Part shown: positions 5,797-59,278 of the stretch, one piece after another | Position numbering within the stretch: the stretch's first letter is position 1 | Layout: every line of letters starts with the position of its first letter | Source of the DNA: Zelonia costaricensis | Taxonomy: Eukaryota > Euglenozoa > Kinetoplastea > Trypanosomatida > Trypanosomatidae | DNA: 64,000 nucleotides | Assembly: GCA_030849075.1 (NCBI GenBank) | Contig: JASAOO010003556.1 | Location: 62,001-126,000 of the forward strand | Direction of reading: 5' to 3' | Position numbers and translations under genes: made by a program | Notes under the pieces: model-generated | The model's input: only the letters and a program-made list of their open reading frames with translations | What the model was told of the DNA's origin: nothing | Database searches by the model: none

Positions 5797-7176
5797 TCAC
5801 CCGCTTCGCGGCTCCTCGTGCACGTCGGGGAAGATCATCTTGGTAAAGGAGGAGATGCGCTTGGCGTACTGGCTGGGTGGGATCGTGGACAGCGTCTTCT
5901 GCTCCCACAGAAATGACTTGAAGAAGTTGGCGCTCTTCTTCTTGATGGTGTACTTGGTCAGCATGTCGATGATGCCCACGTAGTAGATCTCCTGGTCGTA
6001 CAAGCTGTGCACCCCACCGGCGAACTCAGAGAGAGTAACGAACTTGAGAGACTTGTCCCCCTCTGGCTTGTTCGAGTTGCGCAGCGGCGATGACGGCCGC
6101 ACCTCGGCACACGGCGCTGTTGCGGCGGCCGCGCCGTGAGGGGCGGCCATCTTCATGTTCTCGATAACATACCGTCGACCGGAGCGCGATGTCTTGTTCT
6201 CCTGATAGGCGACGCCGATGAGCAGCGAGTAGTCCATGAGACCGGCGGAGTTGAGAAACTGATAGTCGCCGAGCAGCTGCTGCAGCAGTCGCTTGCGGGT
6301 GTTGTGCGGCAGCCAGAAAAGCCGCGTCAGGTCCTTGTCGTGCAGTGTCGACAGCTTCTGCGCGTCCGCGGCGCCCTTGACCACGACGGCATCGGTCGCC
6401 GACCCCTTCTTGTAGCCGGCGGCGGTGGCGTTCGGGTTTACGACGACGTCCCGGTTCTTTGGGGTTTCGATGAGGTACGGGTCTGGCTCGTAGGCGCGGC
6501 GGATGAGGTGGGGGAAGTACTGGTACTTGCCCGGCTTGGGGATGCGGCCCTTGATGTCCCACTTCTCGTGCAGCACCGAGGCGGCGCCGAAGACGTCGTT
6601 GAAGCAGAGAACGTAGCCCACCTCGCCACGCACGGACACCTTCAGTAGCATGTAAAAGCGCATGAGGAGGCTGCTGGGGTTGCTGGCGATGTGCAGCGCG
6701 TAGAGATGGAGAACGTGCAGCAGCACGTGCACCTCCTCCTCCGCGATGGTCTTGCACATGAAGGACATGGTCTTGGACTTGAGAAAGAGCGCCTGCGAGC
6801 GGCCCTCGCCCAGCTCCATCTTGAGGCGCTCCTCCGGCAGCGTCCACTCGTCGGCGAAGCGCTCCTCGGCAACGCCCTCGACCTGCCGCACAAAGTAGAA
6901 GACATCCGGCGCGTACTCGGTCACGTGCACGTCCACCGTCACCCCTTTGCTGTCTGTGGAGGGCACCGTGAGCTCCTGCACTGCCGCGCAGTCCTCCGGC
7001 TTGATGGACTTCGAGTGCTCCGCGAGGCCGCTGTGGGTGCGGCGCACCATCGCCGTCGCGGTTGAGGCGGCCTCAGCCCTGCGCAGCTGGTCGGCGGCCG
7101 TGACCTTGAGGGCGGCAGCGACCTGCAGCGCCGTCAGCCCGCGGCCGCTTGTTGCAGCCCCGCCAACCTGCCCCAT
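5797..7176 (-). CDS. Phosphatidylinositol phosphate kinase family protein (PIP5K-like)
   Basis: The 459-residue product has the PIP kinase core fold, which phosphorylates phosphatidylinositol phosphates on membranes. Visible family blocks in order are: SKTMSFMCKTIAEEE (N-lobe), LLMRFYMLLKVSV with FNDVFG, HEKWDIKGR (counterpart of the K-F-D-L-K-G-S block), a variable insert, LNSAGLMDYSLLIGV (catalytic MDYSLL motif), YYVGIIDMLTKYTIKKKSA (IIDxLxxY metal-binding motif), and PPSQYAKRISSFTKMIF at the C terminus. The start MGQVGGAATSG was chosen because upstream in-frame residues are low complexity; Gly2 makes N-myristoylation possible, an inference only. Substrate specificity (PI4P versus PI5P or PI3P) cannot be told from the sequence. 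It is a single gene in the leftward unit, 0.7 kb from its upstream neighbour. Confidence 0.88.
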   Translation of the reverse strand: MGQVGGAATSGRGLTALQVAAALKVTAADQLRRAEAASTATAMVRRTHSGLAEHSKSIKPEDCAAVQELTVPSTDSKGVTVDVHVTEYAPDVFYFVRQVEGVAEERFADEWTLPEERLKMELGEGRSQALFLKSKTMSFMCKTIAEEEVHVLLHVLHLYALHIASNPSSLLMRFYMLLKVSVRGEVGYVLCFNDVFGAASVLHEKWDIKGRIPKPGKYQYFPHLIRRAYEPDPYLIETPKNRDVVVNPNATAAGYKKGSATDAVVVKGAADAQKLSTLHDKDLTRLFWLPHNTRKRLLQQLLGDYQFLNSAGLMDYSLLIGVAYQENKTSRSGRRYVIENMKMAAPHGAAAATAPCAEVRPSSPLRNSNKPEGDKSLKFVTLSEFAGGVHSLYDQEIYYVGIIDMLTKYTIKKKSANFFKSFLWEQKTLSTIPPSQYAKRISSFTKMIFPDVHEEPRSG

Positions 7177-7889: not shown

Positions 7890-8297
7890 TCAGTCCTTGC
7901 GGAACTTGCGCATGAGCTTCTCCTTCAGCGAGAGCCCCTGCTCGCCCGATGGCGCCTCTGGTGGCGGCGTCGGCTGGCTCGGCGGCTGCGGCTGGCCGTT
8001 CGCCTCGTCGCGGCGGCGCTTGTGCGACAGGATCTGCTGCAGAATGTACGCCTCTGTGGCCTGCTGCGAGGCGGCGGGTGCGGCTGGCGCTGAAGAGGCG
8101 GGCGACGGCCCATTGGACGAGTTCTCTGGGGGCAGGTAGACGCCGGCTGACGCAGACGCGGAGCCGGTGGAGGCGGCGCTGCCAAAGATCTTCGCCTTCA
8201 TAGCGCGGCGGCGCTGCTCGCGCCAGTCCTCGGAGTTGGCGCAGAGCTTCAGCAGCTCCGGGTTGACATTGGTCAGATCCCCGTCGCAGTCCGCCAT
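7890..8297 (-). CDS. Small conserved-looking hypothetical protein (135 aa)
   Basis: The product is 135 residues. The N-terminal 40 are acidic/basic and helical (NPELLKLCANSEDWREQRRR, then AMKAKIF). The middle is an Ala/Ser/Pro-rich linker. The C terminus has a charged helix with HKRRRDE and ends in SLKEKLMRKFRKD. No known domain is recognised; the charged ends with a flexible centre suggest a binding partner of a complex, which is a guess. The strand matches the unit, the codons are GC3-rich, and no upstream in-frame Met competes closely. I regard it as real but of unknown function. Confidence 0.68.
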   Translation of the reverse strand: MADCDGDLTNVNPELLKLCANSEDWREQRRRAMKAKIFGSAASTGSASASAGVYLPPENSSNGPSPASSAPAAPAASQQATEAYILQQILSHKRRRDEANGQPQPPSQPTPPPEAPSGEQGLSLKEKLMRKFRKD

Positions 8298-8985
8298 GGC
8301 TGCCGTGGCAAGGTGGAGAAGAGGCGGCGATGGTCGTGCGCACCGAAGGGCGCTTCACCGAAAGTGTCGATGTGCGACTGCAGGCGCGAGGAGGGGGAGG
8401 GGAGGAGGTGTAAGCGCGTGGCGTGCCCGTGAACTGCGGACGAGTGTGCGTGGCCGGAGCAGAAGTGGGAGAGGGAGTGAAGCAGAAAAAAAGAAGGAGG
8501 CGGTTGGGAAGGGGCGACACGAACAGGAGCGCCGACTGAACGAGCTGTGACGGCGTTGCACGGCACCTCCTTCGCATGTGCGTACTCTCCGCACCAGCAG
8601 GTGCTGGCCTCACCGCCCCTGCGCAGAGAAGACGGGGTGCGGACTGCAGAAGCGAGCCGACAGCTGTGCGCCGGCATTGCCGAAAAGGGGCCCAACGATG
8701 CGGTTATTTCTTGCACGTTGTGCAGCGGCTGCCGTCGTGCGTGTGAGTGTCATTTCTCGTTGTTCTTGCGAAGAGCGAAGGCGCGCGCCGTGGCACGTGC
8801 GCGCAGCCCAGAAGCACAGAGTCCGGCACGGCGGCAAGAAGCCACGTTGCCTACACGCGGTTGGAGGTGCGGGCGACGATGCAAACAAGGCAGCGAACAG
8901 ACGCCGACCGATTCCACGGTCTGGTGCACGCAAAGAGGTGAAGAGCAAAGGCAAACGGGGACAGAAAAGCAATGCCGACATTGTT
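8298..8985. other. Intergenic spacer leading into the 79-bp repeat region
   Basis: Sequence between the small protein and the first 79-bp repeat. It is GC-rich and low in A/T until about 8700, after which composition becomes more mixed. Arg-rich open frames on the plus strand (8580-8980) show no domain. In the transcript the pyrimidine-rich parts (8460-8520 on the minus strand) could serve the trans-splice acceptor of the 7890-8297 gene. Confidence 0.5.
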
Positions 8986-9064
8986 GTTCATAGTAACTAT
9001 GACAATGTGATATCTGTGTATGATCATCGAGTGGTCACGGAAAGCATGGATAAGTTCGAATCAT
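8986..9064 (+). repeat. 79-bp repeat, copy 1 of 3
   Basis: Perfectly identical to the copies at 9367-9445 and 9704-9782. It begins with a short inverted repeat (TCATAG-TAA-CTATGA), contains the palindromes GATATC, TGATCA and TTCGAA, and ends at GAATCAT. It is markedly AT-richer than the surroundings. It includes GTTCGAATC, which matches the RNA polymerase III B-box consensus, and 19 bases upstream TCATCGAGTGG, a poor A-box match. Read as protein, every copy gives VHSNYDNVISVYDHRVVTES followed by MDKFES and a stop. In copy 1 the flank CATTGT upstream could extend the first hairpin. The strand shown is arbitrary. Identity of the element is unknown. Confidence 0.9.
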
Positions 9065-9261
9065 GACAAGCAACTCGGCTGATCACGGCGGCGCAGCGTG
9101 CACAGCACAACTTGCACTGGACTCACCGTGCCTTCCTCCACAGCGTCTCGCAAAACAAACAGTTCTTGATGTCGTTGAATAACCTCGCCGGGTATGGGCA
9201 AACGTGCGGCGAAGGACCTAAAGACATCTGTCACGTAGCAAGCAGACAAGAGTACCCGCAC
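9061..9261 (-). other. Protein-like minus-strand reading frame between repeat copies 1 and 2
   Basis: A 66-codon frame reads FRSFAARLPIPGEVIQRHQE, then LFVLRDAVEEG, which looks more like folded protein than the neighbouring translations, although the codons are not strongly GC3-biased. It has no recognisable family and overlaps the end of repeat copy 1. It may be a fragment of a decayed gene or element, or chance. Confidence 0.2.
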
Positions 9262-9366
9262 CCTCTCATCACGTCGAGTCCTCTATGCACGACACGTTCC
9301 TCTTCTTCCTCCGCATACGCAACCCAAGCCCACGCGCGCACGCAGAGGCGTGGCACAAGGCGGCTC

Positions 9367-9445
9367 GTTCATAGTAACTATGACAATGTGATATCTGTGT
9401 ATGATCATCGAGTGGTCACGGAAAGCATGGATAAGTTCGAATCAT
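9367..9445 (+). repeat. 79-bp repeat, copy 2 of 3
   Basis: Identical to copies 1 and 3 over 79 bases. It shares the extra upstream bases CGGCTC with copy 3 and the downstream AAC with copy 3, where copy 1 has GAC. Start-to-start distance from copy 1 is 381 bases. The spacer before it shows no similarity to the spacer that follows. Confidence 0.9.
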
Positions 9446-9703
9446 AACAACCGTGTGCATGGGTCTCTCTCTACGGCAAGCCCAGCACCCAGCCCGTGCT
9501 CACGGCGCTGCCGCTTGCATTAGGACCTCAGAAGTCACTCTTCTGTCTCCACTGACCTCAAACTGGGTAGCCCTCTACCAACACGCCCCAACAACTGCGC
9601 CACTCATCACCCTCAGGCTTTGATCTCGAGAGACATCGGTGCGCAAAGGGGAAGGAGGTCTGGCAACGCCCCACAACGGACGCGCAGCGCGACGAAGCGG
9701 CTC

Positions 9704-9782
9704 GTTCATAGTAACTATGACAATGTGATATCTGTGTATGATCATCGAGTGGTCACGGAAAGCATGGATAAGTTCGAATCAT
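9704..9782 (+). repeat. 79-bp repeat, copy 3 of 3
   Basis: Identical to copies 1 and 2 over 79 bases, 337 bases after copy 2. Identity with copy 2 extends at least six bases upstream and three downstream, so copies 2 and 3 appear the more recent pair. No fourth copy was seen in the window on either strand. Confidence 0.9.
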
Positions 9783-9973
9783 AACTGCTGCAGTTGATCG
9801 GCGCACGCCGAGCGGTTTCGGCACTCGGCACGGATGTGCTCGTCGCCCGTCGTCTCACCGTCACCAAGCGAGTACCGTGCCCACCAGGTCTAAAGGAGCT
9901 AGCCGCAACACCCAGGCGCAGATCAGAGGGGGTAGACCACGCTAAATGATCCGGAAGTGCTTCAGTGAGGGAA

Positions 9974-10315
9974 TCAGTTCAAACAGAACGCATAATTCAA
10001 AGGATCATCGTCTCTGCCACCTGGTGTACACCGCTCTTCATGGCATCCACTCAATCCAGCATGCACGCACAAACACACAAGCAAATCAGTAATTGCAAGC
10101 GGTGTGTGCGTGCTGCTGAGTCGGTTAGCCAGTCGTGCTATCTCGGGCTTATTTTCTGCGAAGCGATCCATTAAGAACGAGGCAGCCTTCGCGGTAAGCA
10201 TCACCCTTATCAAACCAGTTCTATCATGCACGTCGACTCGTGCGAGCAGTGACAACTCAGGCAGCTCCATATGCGGTGCGACTGCGGCGGCACTTGGACC
10301 GGTGTGTTGCCCCAT
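9974..10315 (-). CDS. Possible small protein of 113 residues, uncertain
   Basis: A minus-strand frame starting at MGQHTGPSAAAVAPHMELPE continues through LSLLARVDVHDRTG, then IRVMLTAKAASFLMDRFAEN and LANRL, which reads like a compact folded domain. The last 40 residues look like untranslated DNA. Third positions are only about half G/C, unlike the 75-85 percent typical of the other genes, so this may be an old, lowly expressed gene, a decayed one, or a chance frame. A longer in-frame extension to 10633 is Pro/Arg-rich and probably not translated. No family was recognised. Confidence 0.35.
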   Translation of the reverse strand: MGQHTGPSAAAVAPHMELPELSLLARVDVHDRTGLIRVMLTAKAASFLMDRFAENKPEIARLANRLSSTHTPLAITDLLVCLCVHAGLSGCHEERCTPGGRDDDPLNYAFCLN

Positions 10316-11263
10316 GTCGAGGGTTGTCGGCCGGCAAGATGCCTTGCAGAGGGCCCGCGATCTTTGGACGAAAAGCGCCGCAAACGTGTGCACGGGTGGG
10401 GCGGAGGAGGGGCGGGGAGGGGGAGAAGAAGCATGTGCGTTGGTGTGCGAGTAAGGTCGCCCTCGTGTACTCGGATGCAGAGGTGAAGGAGGGGGGGGTC
10501 GGAGACGGCGGAGCAGATTCTCAAAGCTGAGGGTACGGGCACTGTGCTGTGCGAGAGTGAGACGAAGCACGTGGCGAGTCCAGCAGCGGGACGACTTCCC
10601 TCGCCACCTCAGCAGGCGCGCAACAAGAGCCACGAGTCGTCCATCGGCGGTGCCGGCACCGCAGAAGAGCCGGCGCGCGCCGATGGGTGAGGAGGGAGAA
10701 GTTGCACTGGTTCTGCGACGTCGTCTGTCGAACAGACACCAGCTTTACGCGTTTTCACAGAAAGAGAGGGGGCCACGTGATACTCCGCGCCGACGTTCTC
10801 CGTGGCGCACTGTGTGAACCCGAAAGCTGCACTTTTTTGTACTCGGATGCGACGCCGTGGGCAGGGAGTAGAGGTGGGGGGGGGGGGTGAAGCGCCGCTC
10901 TATCACCGCCCGAAAGAGAACACCAGCACAACTGCGTGCCAGCGGCAGGTGGGGTGTGGGGTGTGGGGTGAGGTGGGAGACCAGTGCAGCCGCATCCACC
11001 GCTGCCGCGCACTCTCTCGTTGCACACCCTCGCGGCAGTGGAGAAGCGCACCTGCCTCCACTTTTCTCTCTATGTCCTTCACAGCCGCTCTTCTATGAGA
11101 AATTAGAATGCACACCTTTGAACAAAGTGCGGTGGGTGCGGGTTTTAATGGAGGGAGGGGGGGCAGTCGCGAGACGGCACGCCCACAGTACGAAGCAGGA
11201 TAAGGACACGGGGAAGAACGCAAAGAGGGAAAGAGAACTCGTCAGCGCCCCTCGGTGCGCGTT
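10316..11263. other. Intergenic spacer with G runs
   Basis: Spacer of 0.95 kb downstream of the 679-residue protein gene. Plus-strand runs of G occur near 10490, 10876-10887 and 11154-11163; these are C runs in the leftward transcript. No gene or RNA is recognised. Confidence 0.6.
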
Positions 11264-13303
11264 TCACGGCTTCGGGGACGCTACACTCAGCAGCGCGTAA
11301 GGGTCGTACCAGAGGGGCACCGACACGGCGGCGCTGGCCGAGCGCGGCTGCGCGTGCAGGATCTTCTCCAGCCGTTCGCGCCACTCGAACTGCGTTTGCT
11401 CCGCGTAAGCGCGCTTTGCGTTGAGAAAGCGGACGGTGTCCTCCTCAAGCCTCGTGCACAGCGGCGGAACGCGCAGCTCGAGCGGCAGGCGGACGGCCGA
11501 GAAGACGTTGACGCGCGGCACAACCCAGCGCTGCATGTCCACGTTGTCGCTCAGCACCGCGCGCAGGTCGCCTCCGCCGCCGCTCTCGGCGCGCCGGCGC
11601 TTCAGCGGGTTGTCCAGCGCTGTCTCGTCCGGCCGCGGAGGCTTGAAGACGAAGCGCTGCTCCATCACGAGGAGCAGGGCTCCCCACACGGCGCGCTTCT
11701 CCTCAGGAATGGCGGGCTGCGTGCGCAGCCAGGTGAGGTCGCGGGTGCGGCGCTGGGACATGTCCGTTAGCCACGCCTGCTGCGACATGCCGCCCCACGC
11801 CGCGACACGCCAGCGGGCGAGCTGCTCCACAAGCTGCATGAGCGGCCCCGCCTCCTCGGCCTGGATGAAGTGCGAGGCGAAGCGGCGGAAGGACAGCAGG
11901 CCGCCGAGGCGCTCGAACACCGTCTGCACGCCGCCGCTGGAGGCGGCCAGCACGTCCATCACAACGAGCATCTCCCCCGTCTGCTCCGTCATCTCGCACA
12001 ACCGCAGCAGACCAGGCAGGGCCTCGATGCGCTCGTCCGGAAAGGCCCGCGTGGGCTCGCCGCCCTTTACGTGAGCGAGCACCGACAGCCAGAAGAGATG
12101 CCGCATCTCCGGCGGCATCTGCTTCACCCCGGTCGAGGCCAGCGGCGGGGCGGCGGTCGCGCCACCGCCGTGCGCCCCGCCGCCGATGTGCTTCATCGGC
12201 AGCTTCACCGGTGGCCGCGGGCCGCCGACGCCGGGGGCGAGCGGCACCTTCGCGCCGACGGTGGTGACGGTGGTGCTGCCGGACAGGCGCCCCGCAAAGG
12301 GCGGCCGCACGTCCGACCCCGCTGCCACAGGGGGCGCCGCGGCTGCCGTTGTCGCCGGCCGGGGCGCGACGGGGGAAGCGGCGGCGGCCGTCATGGGGAG
12401 CTGCATCGCCTCGATCTTGTAGCCGGCCCCGCTGCGCAGGTACGTCTCCACCTTGACGCGCCGGTCGGACGCGGATGGGAAGCGGATGTTGGTTGACGCC
12501 TGGTCGCCCCCGTAGCGCGTCCCGCCCTTCACCCAGTCCATGTACTTGGTGTGGTACGTCTGCGCCGACAGCACCGTGTCCGGCACCCGGCTCATCGCCA
12601 TGAGCAGCGGCGTGAGCTGCCCTACAAAGGCGTCCCAAAGCGGCTTGAGCGGTCCGGGCTGCAGCGTGTCGTAGAGCAGCTTGAGGTTATCGCAGCAGCA
12701 GGCGAAGCAGATGGCCAGCTCGCCGGCGTTCCGCCAGGTGAAGCGCAGAAACTCGCGGCCGCCGCGCCGCGCCTGCTCCGCCTGTCGCTTGAACTCCAGG
12801 CGCACCTCCGTGACGAACATTTCGACGGCCACCCGGAAGTAGTCGAGGGTGCGGTGGCGCCGCTCCGGGTAGAGCGCCTTGTTGGTGCACAGCACCAGCA
12901 GCACTCGGTGCATCTCCTGCACGTCCTTGAGCCGCGGCAGCGGGATGTACTCCTTGTCGGGTCGGTCAAAGTGCAGGTCGGGGTTCAGCTGCACCTGCCG
13001 CAATGCCTGTGTTGCAGTCGAGTCTTGCGGTGTGCCGGCGGCTGCCTGGGCTGCGGCGGCGGGCCGCCCGGCAGCAGCGGAGGGGTCAACGCGCGAGGGC
13101 GACGAGGGCGCCGTGTCCGTGCGGGAGTCCACAGAGCCGCTGGAGGTCGAGCTGCGGCTGCCGCTGGTGCTGGAGGCGGTGCTGCTGGCGTCCTCGGAGT
13201 CCGTGCTGCTCACGGTAGAGGAGTCGCTCGAGCCGGCCGGCGATGGTGGGCGCCGGCCGCGCGCCGCGGCAGTCGCCGGAAGAGCGCTGCGGCTTGAAGA
13301 CAT
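11264..13303 (-). CDS. Hypothetical 679-residue protein with Ser-rich N terminus
   Basis: The first 95 residues are a Ser/Thr/Ala/Pro-rich, probably disordered stretch. Residues about 105-290 form a helical domain (EYIPLPRLKDVQEMHRVLLV, with FTWRNAGELAICFACCCDNL further on). A Pro/Ala/Gly linker follows, then a second helical domain from about residue 395 (MPPEMRHLFWLSVLAHVKGG; then the LLRLCEMTEQTGEMLVVMDV region and QLARWRVAAW). The second domain faintly recalls the TFIIS N-terminal (LW) helical bundle found in transcription factors, but I cannot confirm this. A basic KRRR near residue 573 could be a nuclear signal. The frame is GC3-rich and long, so a real gene is very likely; function is unknown. 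Confidence 0.86.
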   Translation of the reverse strand: MSSSRSALPATAAARGRRPPSPAGSSDSSTVSSTDSEDASSTASSTSGSRSSTSSGSVDSRTDTAPSSPSRVDPSAAAGRPAAAAQAAAGTPQDSTATQALRQVQLNPDLHFDRPDKEYIPLPRLKDVQEMHRVLLVLCTNKALYPERRHRTLDYFRVAVEMFVTEVRLEFKRQAEQARRGGREFLRFTWRNAGELAICFACCCDNLKLLYDTLQPGPLKPLWDAFVGQLTPLLMAMSRVPDTVLSAQTYHTKYMDWVKGGTRYGGDQASTNIRFPSASDRRVKVETYLRSGAGYKIEAMQLPMTAAAASPVAPRPATTAAAAPPVAAGSDVRPPFAGRLSGSTTVTTVGAKVPLAPGVGGPRPPVKLPMKHIGGGAHGGGATAAPPLASTGVKQMPPEMRHLFWLSVLAHVKGGEPTRAFPDERIEALPGLLRLCEMTEQTGEMLVVMDVLAASSGGVQTVFERLGGLLSFRRFASHFIQAEEAGPLMQLVEQLARWRVAAWGGMSQQAWLTDMSQRRTRDLTWLRTQPAIPEEKRAVWGALLLVMEQRFVFKPPRPDETALDNPLKRRRAESGGGGDLRAVLSDNVDMQRWVVPRVNVFSAVRLPLELRVPPLCTRLEEDTVRFLNAKRAYAEQTQFEWRERLEKILHAQPRSASAAVSVPLWYDPYALLSVASPKP

Positions 13304-30810: not shown

Positions 30811-30886
30811 GGGCGGGCACGGGAGAGTGGTCCACCTCGACGCTGGAACACTCAGCGGCACGTAACAGAAGATAGCGCCTGGCCTC
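30811..30886. repeat. 76-bp duplicate, left of the N gap
   Basis: Identical to 30943-31018. It is followed by GGGGG and then the gap. See the finding on the gap for interpretation. Confidence 0.95.
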
Positions 30887-30891
30887 GGGGG

Positions 30892-30942
30892 NNNNNNNNN
30901 NNNNNNNNNNNNNNNNNNNNNNNNNNNNNNNNNNNNNNNNNN
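30892..30942. other. Run of 51 unknown bases (assembly gap)
   Basis: A block of N. The identical sequences on both sides suggest that two contig ends overlap and were not merged, or that a tandem repeat was collapsed. Confidence 0.99.
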
Positions 30943-31018
30943 GGGCGGGCACGGGAGAGTGGTCCACCTCGACGCTGGAACACTCAGCGGCACGTAACAG
31001 AAGATAGCGCCTGGCCTC
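30943..31018. repeat. 76-bp duplicate, right of the N gap
   Basis: Identical to 30811-30886; it then continues into C-rich sequence (ACCCACCCACCCC) rather than the G run seen after the left copy. Confidence 0.95.
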
Positions 31019-54205: not shown

Positions 54206-55102
54206 TCAGCTCTTGAAAAATGGCGGCTTGAACTCAACAACGATGATCGTCATGTTGTCCGTTCCGGCCTTGACCGAGTTTGACGGGGCAAGACAGCGGT
54301 CCAGGACCTGTTCGCACACAAGACTAATGTCCACCGGAACTGGGTGACCGTTCTTGTCGATCTCCGTGTTGCGGATGAGGGTGCGCACCAGCTTGCAGCA
54401 CTCCTCGTTTGATAGCACGTCCCAGATGCCGTCACATCCAATTACAATAAACTCGTCATCGCTGCGTGACGGCGTAATTGTAATGTCGGGACACGCTGTC
54501 ACCGCCTGCTCGCACCAGTCCTTCGTCTCCATGGACTTGAAGTCGACATCACCCAGTGCACGACTAACCGCCAGAGTCATGTTCACTCGCCCGTTCTCAA
54601 CCTGGCACCCGGCCGCGACAATTCGAGCCTCTTCCGCAGGAACGGACGGCTTGTGGTCTACACTCAGTGGAACGACATTGCCACCACGGTACAGGACAGC
54701 GCGGCTATCACCTGCGTTTGCACAGACAATCTGCTGGTTGGCCAAATAAACGCAGTTCGCCGTGGTGCCACTCGAGGCAAACTTCTCGCAAATCTGCTTG
54801 TCCACCGCCTTGAAGGCTTCCTCGAACGCCGCCTTGAAGTCGCCTTTGCAGATCGCCACGCTCCGGAGCAATTCATCCAGCATGTGCGCTCGACAGTAAC
54901 GTGAGGCTTCGTCTGACTGATGGCCATCGAAGACGCCGAAAAATGCCTGGTCCTTGTTGCCGTCGAGGTTGAGCTGCGCAACGTGCGCGTCCTCCATGGA
55001 CTTGCGCCAGCCCTGCATGCTGCAGCATCCCACACGCAGGTGGGAGGTCTCGAACACCGTCGAGAATTTCTGAGTTTCTGGCTTCGCGAGCATATCACCC
55101 AT
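54206..55102 (-). CDS. Protein phosphatase 2C (PPM family)
   Basis: The 298-residue product is a single PP2C catalytic domain, a Mg/Mn-dependent Ser/Thr phosphatase. All metal-site and core motifs are present: MQGWRKSMEDAH (about 29-40), FFGVFDGHQ (54-62), SSGTTANCV, VCANAGDSRAVLYRGG, DHKPSVPAEEARI, LAVSRALGDVDF, VIGCDGIWDVLSNEE and AGTDNMTIIVVEF. The length equals a minimal PP2C with almost no extensions, so specificity must come from partners. MGDMLAKPETQ offers Gly2 for possible N-myristoylation. In Leishmania major I recall a PP2C gene shortly upstream of CRK3 on chromosome 36, which would agree with this order. The start is the only plausible Met before the first motif. Confidence 0.95.
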   Translation of the reverse strand: MGDMLAKPETQKFSTVFETSHLRVGCCSMQGWRKSMEDAHVAQLNLDGNKDQAFFGVFDGHQSDEASRYCRAHMLDELLRSVAICKGDFKAAFEEAFKAVDKQICEKFASSGTTANCVYLANQQIVCANAGDSRAVLYRGGNVVPLSVDHKPSVPAEEARIVAAGCQVENGRVNMTLAVSRALGDVDFKSMETKDWCEQAVTACPDITITPSRSDDEFIVIGCDGIWDVLSNEECCKLVRTLIRNTEIDKNGHPVPVDISLVCEQVLDRCLAPSNSVKAGTDNMTIIVVEFKPPFFKS

Positions 55103-55652
55103 TTTTCGTTCGCTACGAGAACTGTGTACAGACTAGGTCAAGGTGACGTGCCAGACGGATATACGGCAAGGACACGCACCAATCCATACTGTGGAGGGAA
55201 CACACAGGCGCATTCGTACAGAAAAGTAAGAGCACGCGGAAAAACAAGTCAACACGCAGCATTGTCGCATGATACGACGGTCCACAACCAGTAAAAGCAA
55301 ACAGAGTAACAGGGTGACAGCGAGAGAGAGGGAGTTTGCGCGAATAACGGTCACCTGAGAGTCACAGATGTGGGGCCCGGTCTGTACGAGCTGCAGGAGA
55401 GTCGTTTACCTCTGTCCACGCAGCAGCCTAGGCGGAGTGAAGTTACTTTCCGTTTTTTCTTTTCTTTGGTAGCTCGCCTTTAGCGCAGTTTCTCCGAATC
55501 CTCACAACAGCAGATAAGAGAGCAACGCCCATCACTTCGCGCAAAGGTCAAAACTCTCGGCCTTTCACAAACTCTAGCTCTCCGAATGCTCTGATTTTCA
55601 GACTGCCTGAGCACCGCAACGGAAGATGCGTCAACAAGAGGCTGAAAAACCC
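55103..55652. other. Intergenic spacer between SmD3-like gene and PP2C
   Basis: Spacer of 550 bases, short for this window. It has a T/C tract at 55450-55466 on the plus strand and mixed sequence otherwise. No gene is seen. Confidence 0.6.
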
Positions 55653-56081
55653 TCAGCGCAACTTGCGCCGCAGTTGCTTGCCTTTGTCGACTTTGCGAGG
55701 TGCCTTCTTTGCGCGCACAGGCCGTGGAGCCGGCGCTGCCACTGGGCGCGCGACAGGCAGACGCTTCAACGACTTTTTCAGCTGTTGCTGCACGGCATCC
55801 CTGCGCCACTGAAGACTCGGCGCCGCCTTCATCTCAGGTGGCAGCATGATCAGCCGCACATTCGAGCCGCGCACAGTGACGCGTTCGTGAAAGTCGTACG
55901 ATGAGTCTTTTGCCTGGTGACGGACGTCTACCAGCTCGACGTTGCCACGCAGGACATCGTAGTGCGCCAGCTTGCCCTTGAACGAGTCGCCGTCCACTGT
56001 CTCCACTGTCACACGCGCGTTGACAGCTTCAAACACTAGAGAAGCCGGGATATCCTTTTCTGCAGCTGACGAGTCCGCCAT
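55653..56081 (-). CDS. SMD3: Spliceosomal Sm protein, SmD3 type
   Basis: Sm proteins form the seven-member ring on U1, U2, U4 and U5 snRNAs; in trypanosomatids these act mainly in trans-splicing. The 142-residue product has the Sm1 motif at about 17-52 (IPASLVFEAVNARVTVETVD, then GDSFKGKLAHYDVLRGNVEL) and the Sm2 motif at about 65-81 (HERVTVRGSNVRLIMLPPEM). 'EA...VTVET..G..F.GKL' and the RGSNVR..MLP..M..AP block are characteristic of SmD3. The C-terminal 50 residues are basic (VRAKKAPRKVDKGKQLRRKL). Trypanosomes have both a canonical SmD3 and a U2-specific variant that replaces it; I cannot tell which this is. The start lies one base after an 11-A tract in the mRNA; upstream codons would be Lys-rich. 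Confidence 0.88.
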   Translation of the reverse strand: MADSSAAEKDIPASLVFEAVNARVTVETVDGDSFKGKLAHYDVLRGNVELVDVRHQAKDSSYDFHERVTVRGSNVRLIMLPPEMKAAPSLQWRRDAVQQQLKKSLKRLPVARPVAAPAPRPVRAKKAPRKVDKGKQLRRKLR

Positions 56082-56459
56082 CTTTTTTTTTTTCCTAGCA
56101 GTGAGGCTATAGGGCAGTTTGCGGGAAGTACAAGAGAAGTGGGGGGAACGTGGTGGCGTGCATGGAAGAAGCACCCTCAATTTCCTCTTCTTTACGGGCA
56201 GAGGAGGCGCTTTTGATGGCGTGCGCGCGTCGTTGTCGTCGTTGAGCAGAGCAGGGCGAAGAACTGCCCGTTTTTTTGAACTAGTGGGTTATTTCTTTTT
56301 TTTCTTTTCGCTTGCCTCGGCAAAGGCGATTAGAGGGCATTCCCAACACCAGGGTTACTGCAAACGTCAGGGCGCATAGGCTCGCTGGATGGTGGCTAAG
56401 CTGACTTGCTTCATGGTCCTTGGGGCCGCTGAACGTCGCGCTGGAGGGGCGGTGTGCAC

Positions 56460-58327: not shown

Positions 58328-59278
58328 ATGGCGATCACAATCAAACTCGCGAATGGCACCCAGCACACGGTGGAAGTGGCTGACTTTGGTGTGACTGTGA
58401 CCGAGCTCAAGAAGCAAATTGCTGAGACGCTGGAGATTCCTGCTGACGAGCAGCGTATCATCCTTCGCGGAAAGGTGCTCAAGGACGAGGGCGTTCTGTC
58501 AGCCGTGGGCATGGAGGACGGCAACGTCATCCACGTCGTGCGGAGCAAGAAGAACACTGCCGCCACCTCGAACCCGTCTGCTGCATCAACGGCAAACATA
58601 TCAGCGCCGTCTTCGGCGGTTGCCGTTCCTGCGCCGACGCCAAGTCAAGCCCAGCCCGTGCCGAGCGCAGCCAACCCGTATGCTGCGCTGATGAGCACCT
58701 TCGGCGCCCCGCAAGCGCCTACAGCCGGAGCCGGCCTGCCGGCCATGAACCCGTACGGCGGCATGGGGATGGGTGGTGCCGGTGCGGGTATGGACATGTT
58801 CGGCGCCGGTGCGCCCAACCCACAGCAGGCGATGGAGATGATGCAGAACCCGATGATGCAGCAGATGATGCAGCAGGCTCTCAGCAATCCCCAGTTTATG
58901 CAATACGTGATCCAAAGCAACCCACAGCTAGCGAGCATGCCGCCTCAGCAGCAGCAAGCCATCATTGAGATGATGCGCAACCCGCAAATGATGCAGCTGG
59001 CTATGGCGATGTCGGGTGGCCTTGGTGGTCCCGGGGCAACGCCACAGAGTGCTGCGGGTGCTGCACCGCAGGGAGCGGCACCCTCGCCTTTTGGCGCGGG
59101 CTTCAACCCCGCCATGTTTGCCCCACCAGTGCCGCAGGGTAACCCGCGCGAAGTCTACCGCGAACAGCTCCAGCAGCTCCGTGATATGGGCTTCCCGAAC
59201 GAGGAGGCCAACATCGCCGCTCTGCAGCAGGCGCAAGGGAATGTTCAGTTTGCGTTGGAGCGTCTGCTTGGCGCCTAG
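58328..59278 (+). CDS. DSK2: Ubiquilin/DSK2-type shuttle protein
   Basis: Ubiquilins carry ubiquitylated clients to the proteasome. The 316-residue product has an N-terminal ubiquitin-like domain at about 1-75 (MAITIKLANGTQHTVEVADF, IPADEQRIILRGKVLKDEGV), a low-complexity Ala/Pro/Ser linker, an STI1-type Met/Gln/Asn-Pro-rich region at about 160-225 (MEMMQNPMMQQMMQQALSNP, QAIIEMMRNPQMMQLAMAMS), and a C-terminal UBA domain at about 277-316 (YREQLQQLRDMGFPNEEANI, then ALQQAQGNVQFALERLLGA). The MGF loop and the LL near the end are the expected ubiquitin contacts. It is shorter than animal ubiquilins (about 550-600) because it has one STI1 block, as in yeast Dsk2. The start is immediately after an A-rich leader. 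Confidence 0.94.
   Translation: MAITIKLANGTQHTVEVADFGVTVTELKKQIAETLEIPADEQRIILRGKVLKDEGVLSAVGMEDGNVIHVVRSKKNTAATSNPSAASTANISAPSSAVAVPAPTPSQAQPVPSAANPYAALMSTFGAPQAPTAGAGLPAMNPYGGMGMGGAGAGMDMFGAGAPNPQQAMEMMQNPMMQQMMQQALSNPQFMQYVIQSNPQLASMPPQQQQAIIEMMRNPQMMQLAMAMSGGLGGPGATPQSAAGAAPQGAAPSPFGAGFNPAMFAPPVPQGNPREVYREQLQQLRDMGFPNEEANIAALQQAQGNVQFALERLLGA

What the first reader, a model, noticed from the sequence alone, without database searches (positions are those of the whole stretch)
8986..9782. A 79-bp sequence repeated three times with perfect identity among unrelated spacers
Copies at 8986-9064, 9367-9445 and 9704-9782 are identical over 79 bases, while the roughly 300- and 258-bp spacers between them show no similarity. 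That pattern suggests either a functional unit kept identical or a recent spread of a short element. It is AT-richer than its surroundings, begins with a small hairpin (TCATAG-TAA-CTATGA), and contains GTTCGAATC, a match to the polymerase III B box. An open reading of 26 codons ends in a stop at the same place in all copies, although the stop differs (TGA in copy 1, TAA in copies 2 and 3). It does not fold as a tRNA, lacks snoRNA C/D boxes and an AGA box, and is not a snRNA I recognise. It could be a new small RNA (for example tRNA-like), a short mobile unit, or a peptide-coding module.
Basis: partly seen in the sequence, partly recalled or inferred. Interest (0 to 1): 0.78.

Follow-up and report, generated by a model that had tools for sequence, protein, structure and literature searches.

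The report
Triplicated C/D snoRNA gene (SNORD46-like)
The thrice-repeated 79-base sequence is most likely a small gene for a guide RNA that directs a chemical mark onto one adenosine of the ribosome, a known kind of gene in a trypanosomatid, with unusual but mutually compensating recognition motifs.

Summary
The repeat is real: three copies identical over 79 bp, with no further match in the searches of the 28.7-Mb assembly. It lies in a ~3-kb intergenic stretch of a trypanosomatid gene array whose neighbouring ORFs run on the minus strand. Read on that strand, each copy has the layout of a box C/D snoRNA: C (AUGAUUC), D' (GUGA), C' (AUGAUCA), D (AUGA) and a short terminal stem. The identical block begins at the first base of box C and ends two bases after box D. 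The 12 nt directly upstream of box D (GTCATAGTTACT) are the antisense element of the SNORD46/snR63/PFS14/GlsR7 snoRNAs, assigned to 2'-O-methylation of LSU rRNA at yeast Am2256 = human Am3739. The boxes deviate from consensus in complementary pairs (C6:D1 = U-A; C'6:D'1 = C-G); AUGAUU/AUGA is described in Guillardia nucleomorph snoRNAs. No exact match to this guide with a canonical box D was found in the assembly. The host's own rRNA could not be retrieved and no expression data were available. Verdict: a new member of a known kind; interest modest.

The parts
8984..9069 (-). C/D snoRNA gene, copy 1 (box C to box D plus 4-bp terminal stem UUGU/ACAA)
9365..9450 (-). C/D snoRNA gene, copy 2 (terminal stem UUGU/ACGA, one U.G)
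9702..9787 (-). C/D snoRNA gene, copy 3 (terminal stem GU/AC only)
9058..9064 (-). box C, copy 1: AUGAUUC (copies 2, 3 at 9439-9445, 9776-9782)
   Evidence: consensus RUGAUGA
9035..9038 (-). box D', copy 1: GUGA (9416-9419, 9753-9756)
9021..9027 (-). box C', copy 1: AUGAUCA (9402-9408, 9739-9745); position 6 C is complementary to box D' G1
8992..9003 (-). antisense element, copy 1: GUCAUAGUUACU, complementary to LSU rRNA AGUAACUAUGAC (9373-9384, 9710-9721)
8988..8991 (-). box D, copy 1: AUGA (9369-9372, 9706-9709); A1 is complementary to box C U6
9039..9054 (-). possible second guide upstream of box D', copy 1: CUUAUCCAUGCUUUCC; target not established
8298..11263 (-). intergenic host region between a 679-aa ORF (11264-13303 -) and a conserved 135-aa gene (7890-8297 -)

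Best explanation
[quoted passage not shown] Boxes C and D fold into a kink-turn that binds Snu13/15.5K and recruits Nop56, Nop58 and fibrillarin. The 12 nt upstream of box D pair with LSU rRNA AGUAACUAUGAC and place the second A of AGUAAC (fifth nucleotide from box D) for 2'-O-methylation: the SNORD46/snR63 site, yeast Am2256 = human Am3739. Shown from sequence: the identical copies, strand context, box layout, the match to the published antisense element, and no other exact copy of guide plus box D in the assembly. Inferred: transcription, processing, kink-turn formation, methylation.
For: (1) The identical block starts at the first base of box C and ends 2 nt after box D. (2) GUCAUAGUUACU abutting a UGA box matches the 3' end of P. 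falciparum PFS14 (GTCATAGTTACTCTGATT; 28S Am2551 = yeast LSU Am2256) and shares TCATAGTTACT plus box D with E. histolytica Me-Eh-LSU-A2333. Rfam models GlsR7 and SNORD46 match this part on the minus strand near their 3' ends, below gathering score. [quoted passage not shown] (3) The box C and D deviations compensate (C6:D1 U-A); the same AUGAUU/AUGA pair is described in G. theta GtNM-R12-14, citing archaeal mutational work (Kuhn 2002) in which restoring the pair restored protein binding. C'6:D'1 (C-G) is complementary too. (4) The full C-D'-C'-D layout, with or without stem I, occurs in the 64-kb window, both strands, only at these 3 places; 2 of 20,000 Markov shuffles (36 without stem I) have it. 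(5) The one variable base of the 82-nt unit lies just before box C, an unpaired kink-turn position (position recalled); copies 1 and 2 keep four terminal pairs (ACAA to ACGA). (6) A perfect 12-bp match to a 47-nt LSU stretch: 0 of 2,000 shuffles; among 638 minus-strand 84-mers sampled every 100 bases only the one overlapping copy 2. (7) Most trypanosomatid snoRNA genes are clustered and transcribed polycistronically by Pol II (PMC6562600).
Against: Neither box matches the consensus (C 2 mismatches, D 1). No Rfam model reaches its gathering score; of 6 weak rows two are on the plus strand, one of them GlsR7 again (10.3 bits, the palindromic part), and a spacer stretch also gave 5 weak C/D-type rows, so weak Rfam rows are not specific. 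The outer C/D pair alone is not specific: 20 places in the window fit it, 5 with stem I, the three copies included. By the rule of PMC8413462 C'/D' needs a first stem I base pair to bind Snu13; here that position is C opposite C, so the internal motif may not be functional (that paper lists yeast snR63 among motifs lacking it). Free-RNA energy is no better than shuffles (z +0.04 plus, +1.0 minus), and the guide can pair with box D in a 6-bp hairpin. Copy 3 has only a 2-bp terminal stem. No expression or cross-species data. The layout test was written after seeing the sequence.
Confidence: 0.9

Rival explanations
1. Degenerate snoRNA copies (pseudogenes): three recently spread, no longer functional copies of a C/D snoRNA whose working gene is elsewhere or unassembled.
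For: Box C and box D both deviate from consensus; the published snoRNAs with this antisense element have CTGA.
Against: The deviations are complementary at both box pairs, and AUGAUU/AUGA occurs in described snoRNAs. Three copies stay identical while spacers share nothing. No exact match to the guide with a canonical box D was found in the assembly.
Confidence: 0.05
2. An H/ACA-like (AGA-box) trypanosomatid snoRNA on the minus strand: a hairpin with a pocket followed by CAC-AGA-UAU.
For: The minimum-energy fold of the minus strand has a pocket-like hairpin, and ACAGAUAU would place an AGA box 3 nt from a possible 3' end, as in the published model.
Against: It would leave ~24 identical nt unexplained, including the whole antisense element. 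The fold is weaker than most shuffles (163 of 200 fold at least as well). The crude H/ACA-like model gave 1,847,073 candidates in L. major, so a fit says little. No target was tested.
Confidence: 0.03
3. A DNA or mRNA regulatory element, short mobile unit or peptide module with no snoRNA function.
For: Palindromic stretches and a 26-codon plus-strand open frame.
Against: Only three clustered copies found in the genome. The plus frame has GC3 0.42 against 0.82-0.90 in five window ORFs. No match among solved structures at E up to 10. It does not explain the antisense element or the boxes.
Confidence: 0.02

Closest known systems
SNORD46 (U46, human; Rfam RF00218) and snR63 (yeast; Am2256/Am3739)
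   Same: Antisense element against the same LSU stretch, directly upstream of box D (SNORD46 consensus UUGUCAUAGUUAC); same predicted LSU adenosine. The snR63 sequence itself was not seen
   Different: Box C/D are AUGAUUC/AUGA instead of RUGAUGA/CUGA; the Rfam model aligns only over guide and box D; three local copies
PFS14 (Plasmodium), Me-Eh-LSU-A2333 (Entamoeba), GlsR7 (Giardia; RF02476), GtNM-R8 (Guillardia nucleomorph)
   Same: Antisense element against the same LSU stretch, abutting box D (the GtNM-R8 sequence itself was not seen)
   Different: PFS14, Me-Eh-LSU-A2333 and the GlsR7 model use CUGA; lengths differ (PFS14 147 nt)
Guillardia theta nucleomorph snoRNAs GtNM-R12 to R14
   Same: Same compensated box pair AUGAUU / AUGA
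   Different: Other targets; different lineage
Plant snoU36a (Rfam RF01302)
   Same: Full-length sub-threshold alignment (15.7 bits, gathering 45); its consensus also reads AUGAUU near the 5' end and AUGA near the 3' end
   Different: Different sequence upstream of box D; E 0.67, so not evidence of descent

Membership tests
Box C/D snoRNA | Box C RUGAUGA near the 5' end | tested here: inconclusive
   AUGAUUC: 5 of 7 positions; UGAU core kept; G6 to U matched by box D A1
Box C/D snoRNA | Box D CUGA near the 3' end | tested here: inconclusive
   AUGA: 3 of 4 positions. AUGA is reported as box D in 2 of 41 E. histolytica C/D snoRNAs and in G. theta GtNM-R12-14
Box C/D snoRNA | Tandem G.A pairs and flanking stem I able to form a C/D kink-turn | tested here: met
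   By sequence only: UGA in C and D; stem I U-A and G-C in all 3 copies, 4 pairs in copies 1 and 2
Box C/D snoRNA | Functional C'/D' motif (optional in eukaryotes) | tested here: inconclusive
   UGA in both and C6:D1 complementary, but no first stem I pair (C opposite C), which PMC8413462 holds necessary
Box C/D snoRNA | 10-21 nt antisense to rRNA directly upstream of D or D' | tested here: met
   12 nt upstream of D, equal to the published element; own rRNA not available
Box C/D snoRNA | Size about 60-100 nt | tested here: met
   About 82-86 nt from terminal stem to terminal stem; range from PMC3542256
SNORD46/snR63 group | Guide against LSU Am2256 (yeast) / Am3739 (human) on the D side | tested here: met
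   Guide identity and position; methylation itself not testable
SNORD46/snR63 group | Rfam model score above gathering | tested here: not met
   RF00218 10.9 bits of 40; RF02476 11.5 of 75, each covering guide + box D only. The group is named here for shared target, not proven descent
Expressed snoRNP | Stable RNA bound by fibrillarin/Snu13 | not testable with these tools
   No expression or protein-binding data
Trypanosomatid H/ACA-like RNA | Hairpin with pocket and AGA box 3 nt from the 3' end, 57-91 nt | tested here: inconclusive
   A weak version can be drawn but leaves the guide/box D part unexplained
Pol III gene / tRNA-like RNA | tRNA fold, or a T-run soon after the unit | tested here: not met
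   No tRNA called. No run of 4 T soon after copies 2 and 3, or after any copy on the plus strand; copy 1 has TTTT 16 nt downstream on the minus strand

The most novel reading that the evidence does not exclude
In this trypanosomatid the only guide found for the SNORD46 site carries a double compensatory switch of its box motifs (C/D pair G-C to U-A, C'/D' pair G-C to C-G) and is kept identical in three copies, presumably by gene conversion or purifying selection. It would show that the first stem II pair of both motifs can be swapped in nature without loss of guide function, and that scans requiring canonical boxes miss such genes in kinetoplastids. (Odds lowered from 0.5 to 0.4 on checking: the C'/D' motif lacks the first stem I pair, so its swap may be chance.)
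Probability: 0.4. Interest if true: 0.4.

Novelty: new member of a known kind. Interest (0 to 1): 0.3.

Why it matters
It turns an unexplained repeat into an ordinary, testable gene: a kinetoplastid guide for a methylation site reported or predicted in yeast, human, Neurospora, Dictyostelium, Plasmodium, Giardia and Guillardia. It also gives a natural example in which the kink-turn boxes depart from consensus but stay complementary, and warns that annotation relying on RUGAUGA/CUGA or on Rfam thresholds can overlook such genes.

Tried and rejected
Rejected: the SRP-associated tRNA-like RNA (sRNA-76/sRNA-85) as identity. The passages seen concern a tRNA-like molecule, and no tRNA is called here; its sequence was not compared. 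The 79-bp signature of trypanosomatid retroposons is a recalled coincidence of length; it was not compared, and the unit is not dispersed. Peptide module: codon usage and solved structures give no support. Bacterial or viral origin: no exact match to a 24-mer in viral contigs or a 40-mer in genome contigs.

Led nowhere: Rfam at gathering score (0 matches) and at E up to 10 on larger stretches, where nothing matched the unit alone (one minus-strand lncRNA row spans part of copy 2); C/D rows appeared only when 101 bp were scanned (6 rows: 4 minus, 2 plus). As a partial control a 101-bp spacer stretch gave 0 rows at the same setting, but the other spacer (111 bp) gave 5 weak C/D-type rows, so such rows alone are not specific. 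The second guide (upstream of D'): 11 of 12 positions pair (9 Watson-Crick, 2 G.U) with the recalled LSU stretch AAGCGCGGGUAA, but box D' is then 3 nt further on, and 11 of 638 window 84-mers and 4 of 2,000 shuffles do as well (35 of 2,000 without the Watson-Crick minimum), so I do not claim it. The 113-aa minus ORF 9974-10315 had no homologue at E 0.001 (18 candidates). PMC5693986 passages did not settle whether Leishmania carries the methyl mark. The L. major and T. brucei genome-wide snoRNA papers are not held, so I cannot say whether this RNA is already listed there. A text search for guide and box words found 4 papers, none on trypanosomatids by title: two with snoRNAs, a barley small RNA that holds the same guide plus CTGA, and PMC12180492 on the R2 retrotransposon (listing only).

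Papers: of PMC2613932 outline, abstract and passages were seen; of the other 13 fetched papers passages only. Kuhn 2002 is known only through PMC6461891.

Full report
Observation. The three copies at 8986-9064, 9367-9445 and 9704-9782 are identical over 79 bases, and the two spacers share no repeat family with each other. A search of the 28.7-Mb, 755-contig assembly lists exactly these three places; two sub-patterns with up to 3 mismatches list no others, and the reversed control patterns none. An identity of this length is not chance. The unit is AT-rich (38% GC; 0.28% of window 79-mers are as low, the copies included).

Setting. The window comes from a trypanosomatid. A 135-aa minus-strand ORF at 7890-8297 has 16 relatives at E 0.001; the 12 with a named source are all trypanosomatids (Novymonas 58% identity, Leptomonas, Leishmania, Porcisia, Trypanosoma), and the closest, 97%, is unnamed. 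The next ORFs on either side, a PIP5K-domain ORF at 5797-7176 and a 679-aa ORF at 11264-13303, are also on the minus strand. A 113-aa ORF in between has no homologue at E 0.001 and is probably not a gene, so the repeats sit in a ~3-kb intergenic stretch of a minus-strand gene array. Most trypanosomatid snoRNA genes are clustered, transcribed polycistronically by Pol II, and processed from trans-spliced, polyadenylated precursors (PMC6562600, passages). The strand to read is therefore the minus strand.

Anatomy on the minus strand (copy 1). 5'-UUGU-C-[AUGAUUC]-GAA-CUUAUCCAUGCUUUCC-[GUGA]-CCACUCG-[AUGAUCA]-...-GUCAUAGUUACU-[AUGA]-ACAA-3'. This is the order C, D', C', D with a terminal stem. The identical block begins at the first base of box C and ends two bases after box D. 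With the next three bases the unit is 82 nt with one variable base; that base lies just before box C, which I recall as an unpaired kink-turn bulge position. Terminal pairs U-A and G-C are present in all copies; copies 1 and 2 keep two more (ACAA against ACGA, both pairing with UUGU).

Box chemistry. Consensus boxes are RUGAUGA and CUGA (PMC3542256). Here position 6 of box C is U and position 1 of box D is A; position 6 of box C' is C and position 1 of box D' is G. The consensus G-C pair between these positions would thus be replaced by U-A and by C-G. The first swap, AUGAUU with AUGA, is described for Guillardia nucleomorph snoRNAs GtNM-R12 to R14; that paper calls it compensatory and cites archaeal mutational work in which restoring the pair restored protein binding and folding (PMC6461891, passages). 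AUGA is box D in 2 of 41 E. histolytica C/D snoRNAs. The consensus of plant snoU36a, aligned full length below threshold, also reads AUGAUU and AUGA. A scan for the whole layout, with Watson-Crick C6:D1 and C'6:D'1, finds in the 64-kb window on both strands only the three copies, with or without two stem I pairs. Markov shuffles of one 100-nt copy region show it in 2 of 20,000 (36 without stem I). The outer C/D pair alone is common: 20 places, 5 with stem I, the copies included. The test was designed after seeing the sequence. A caution: by PMC8413462 (passages) a eukaryotic C'/D' motif needs a first stem I pair to bind Snu13; here those bases are C and C, so the internal motif may not be functional. 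The same paper lists yeast snR63 among motifs lacking that pair.

Target. The 12 nt abutting box D, GUCAUAGUUACU, are the D-guide of a known group. P. falciparum PFS14 ends GTCATAGTTACTCTGATT and is assigned to 28S Am2551 = yeast LSU Am2256 (PMC2656528, passages). E. histolytica Me-Eh-LSU-A2333 ends TTTCATAGTTACTCTGAAC (PMC3542256). The Rfam models GlsR7 (Giardia) and SNORD46 align to this part on the minus strand, at 11.5 and 10.9 bits, below gathering; GlsR7 also matches the palindromic part on the plus strand at 10.3 bits. [quoted passage not shown] Am2256 (snR63) equals human Am3739 (U46) and Dictyostelium Am2522; the Arabidopsis column is empty there (PMC8817022). Neurospora CD33 guides the same site from its D side (PMC2780460). 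By the fifth-nucleotide rule (PMC3542256) the methylated residue is the second A of AGUAAC. Within the assembly, GTCATAGTTACTNTGA occurs only at the three copies and CATAGTTACTCTGA nowhere, both as exact patterns.

Limits. The host's rRNA could not be read: 11 family searches did not complete, and three universal-motif searches found nothing in the assembly, so rDNA seems not to be assembled or is withheld. Free-RNA folding energy is unremarkable on both strands, and the guide can pair with box D in a hairpin. Weak C/D-type Rfam rows also appear in one of two spacer stretches tested. The target of the element upstream of D' is open: pairing with a second LSU stretch is suggestive but not specific. 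No homologous locus from another trypanosomatid could be fetched, and the published L. major and T. brucei snoRNA lists were not held, so I do not claim that this RNA is unreported.

Mechanism. Most likely (0.9) the three copies are one C/D snoRNA gene at raised dosage. The polycistronic transcript is trimmed to ~80-86 nt, Snu13 binds the C/D kink-turn, Nop56, Nop58 and fibrillarin join, and the D-guide pairs with LSU rRNA for 2'-O-methylation. Shown: copies, strand context, boxes, guide identity, no other exact guide copy. Inferred: transcription, processing, assembly, methylation. Pattern and length are then ordinary: RNA genes kept alike among unrelated spacers.

Noticed in passing
window 9528-9616, minus strand: A perfect box C (GTGATGA at 9610) with CTGA 79 nt downstream inside spacer 2: a possible second C/D snoRNA of a cluster, target unknown; a further perfect box C at 9272 (spacer 1) has no CTGA in range. 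Chance is not excluded: the window has 24 RTGATGA, 4 of them with CTGA in range.
   Followed up: partly
window 30811-30972: A run of N (30892-30942) is followed directly by a 30-mer that also occurs at 30811, just before the run, as if an overlap was left unmerged.
   Followed up: no
window about 55100-56390: Of ORFs of 250 aa or more, 19 of 24 up to 55.1 kb are on the minus strand and 4 of 4 from 56.4 kb on the plus strand: a likely divergent strand-switch (transcription start) region.
   Followed up: no
window 59060-59136, minus strand: tRNA-Phe (GAA) lying inside a plus-strand ORF, 58328-59278, against the direction of the right-hand array.
   Followed up: no
whole assembly G000: Universal LSU and SSU rRNA motifs are not found, so rDNA appears to be unassembled or withheld.
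   Followed up: partly
window 7890-8297, minus strand: A 135-aa protein found across trypanosomatids; the source names shown say only hypothetical or uncharacterized.
   Followed up: no
paper PMC7020447 (barley small RNAs): A 'novel miRNA' listed there, ctttgtcatagttactctgatag, holds the same guide plus CTGA; it may be a fragment of a plant snoRNA of this group rather than a miRNA (inference).
   Followed up: no
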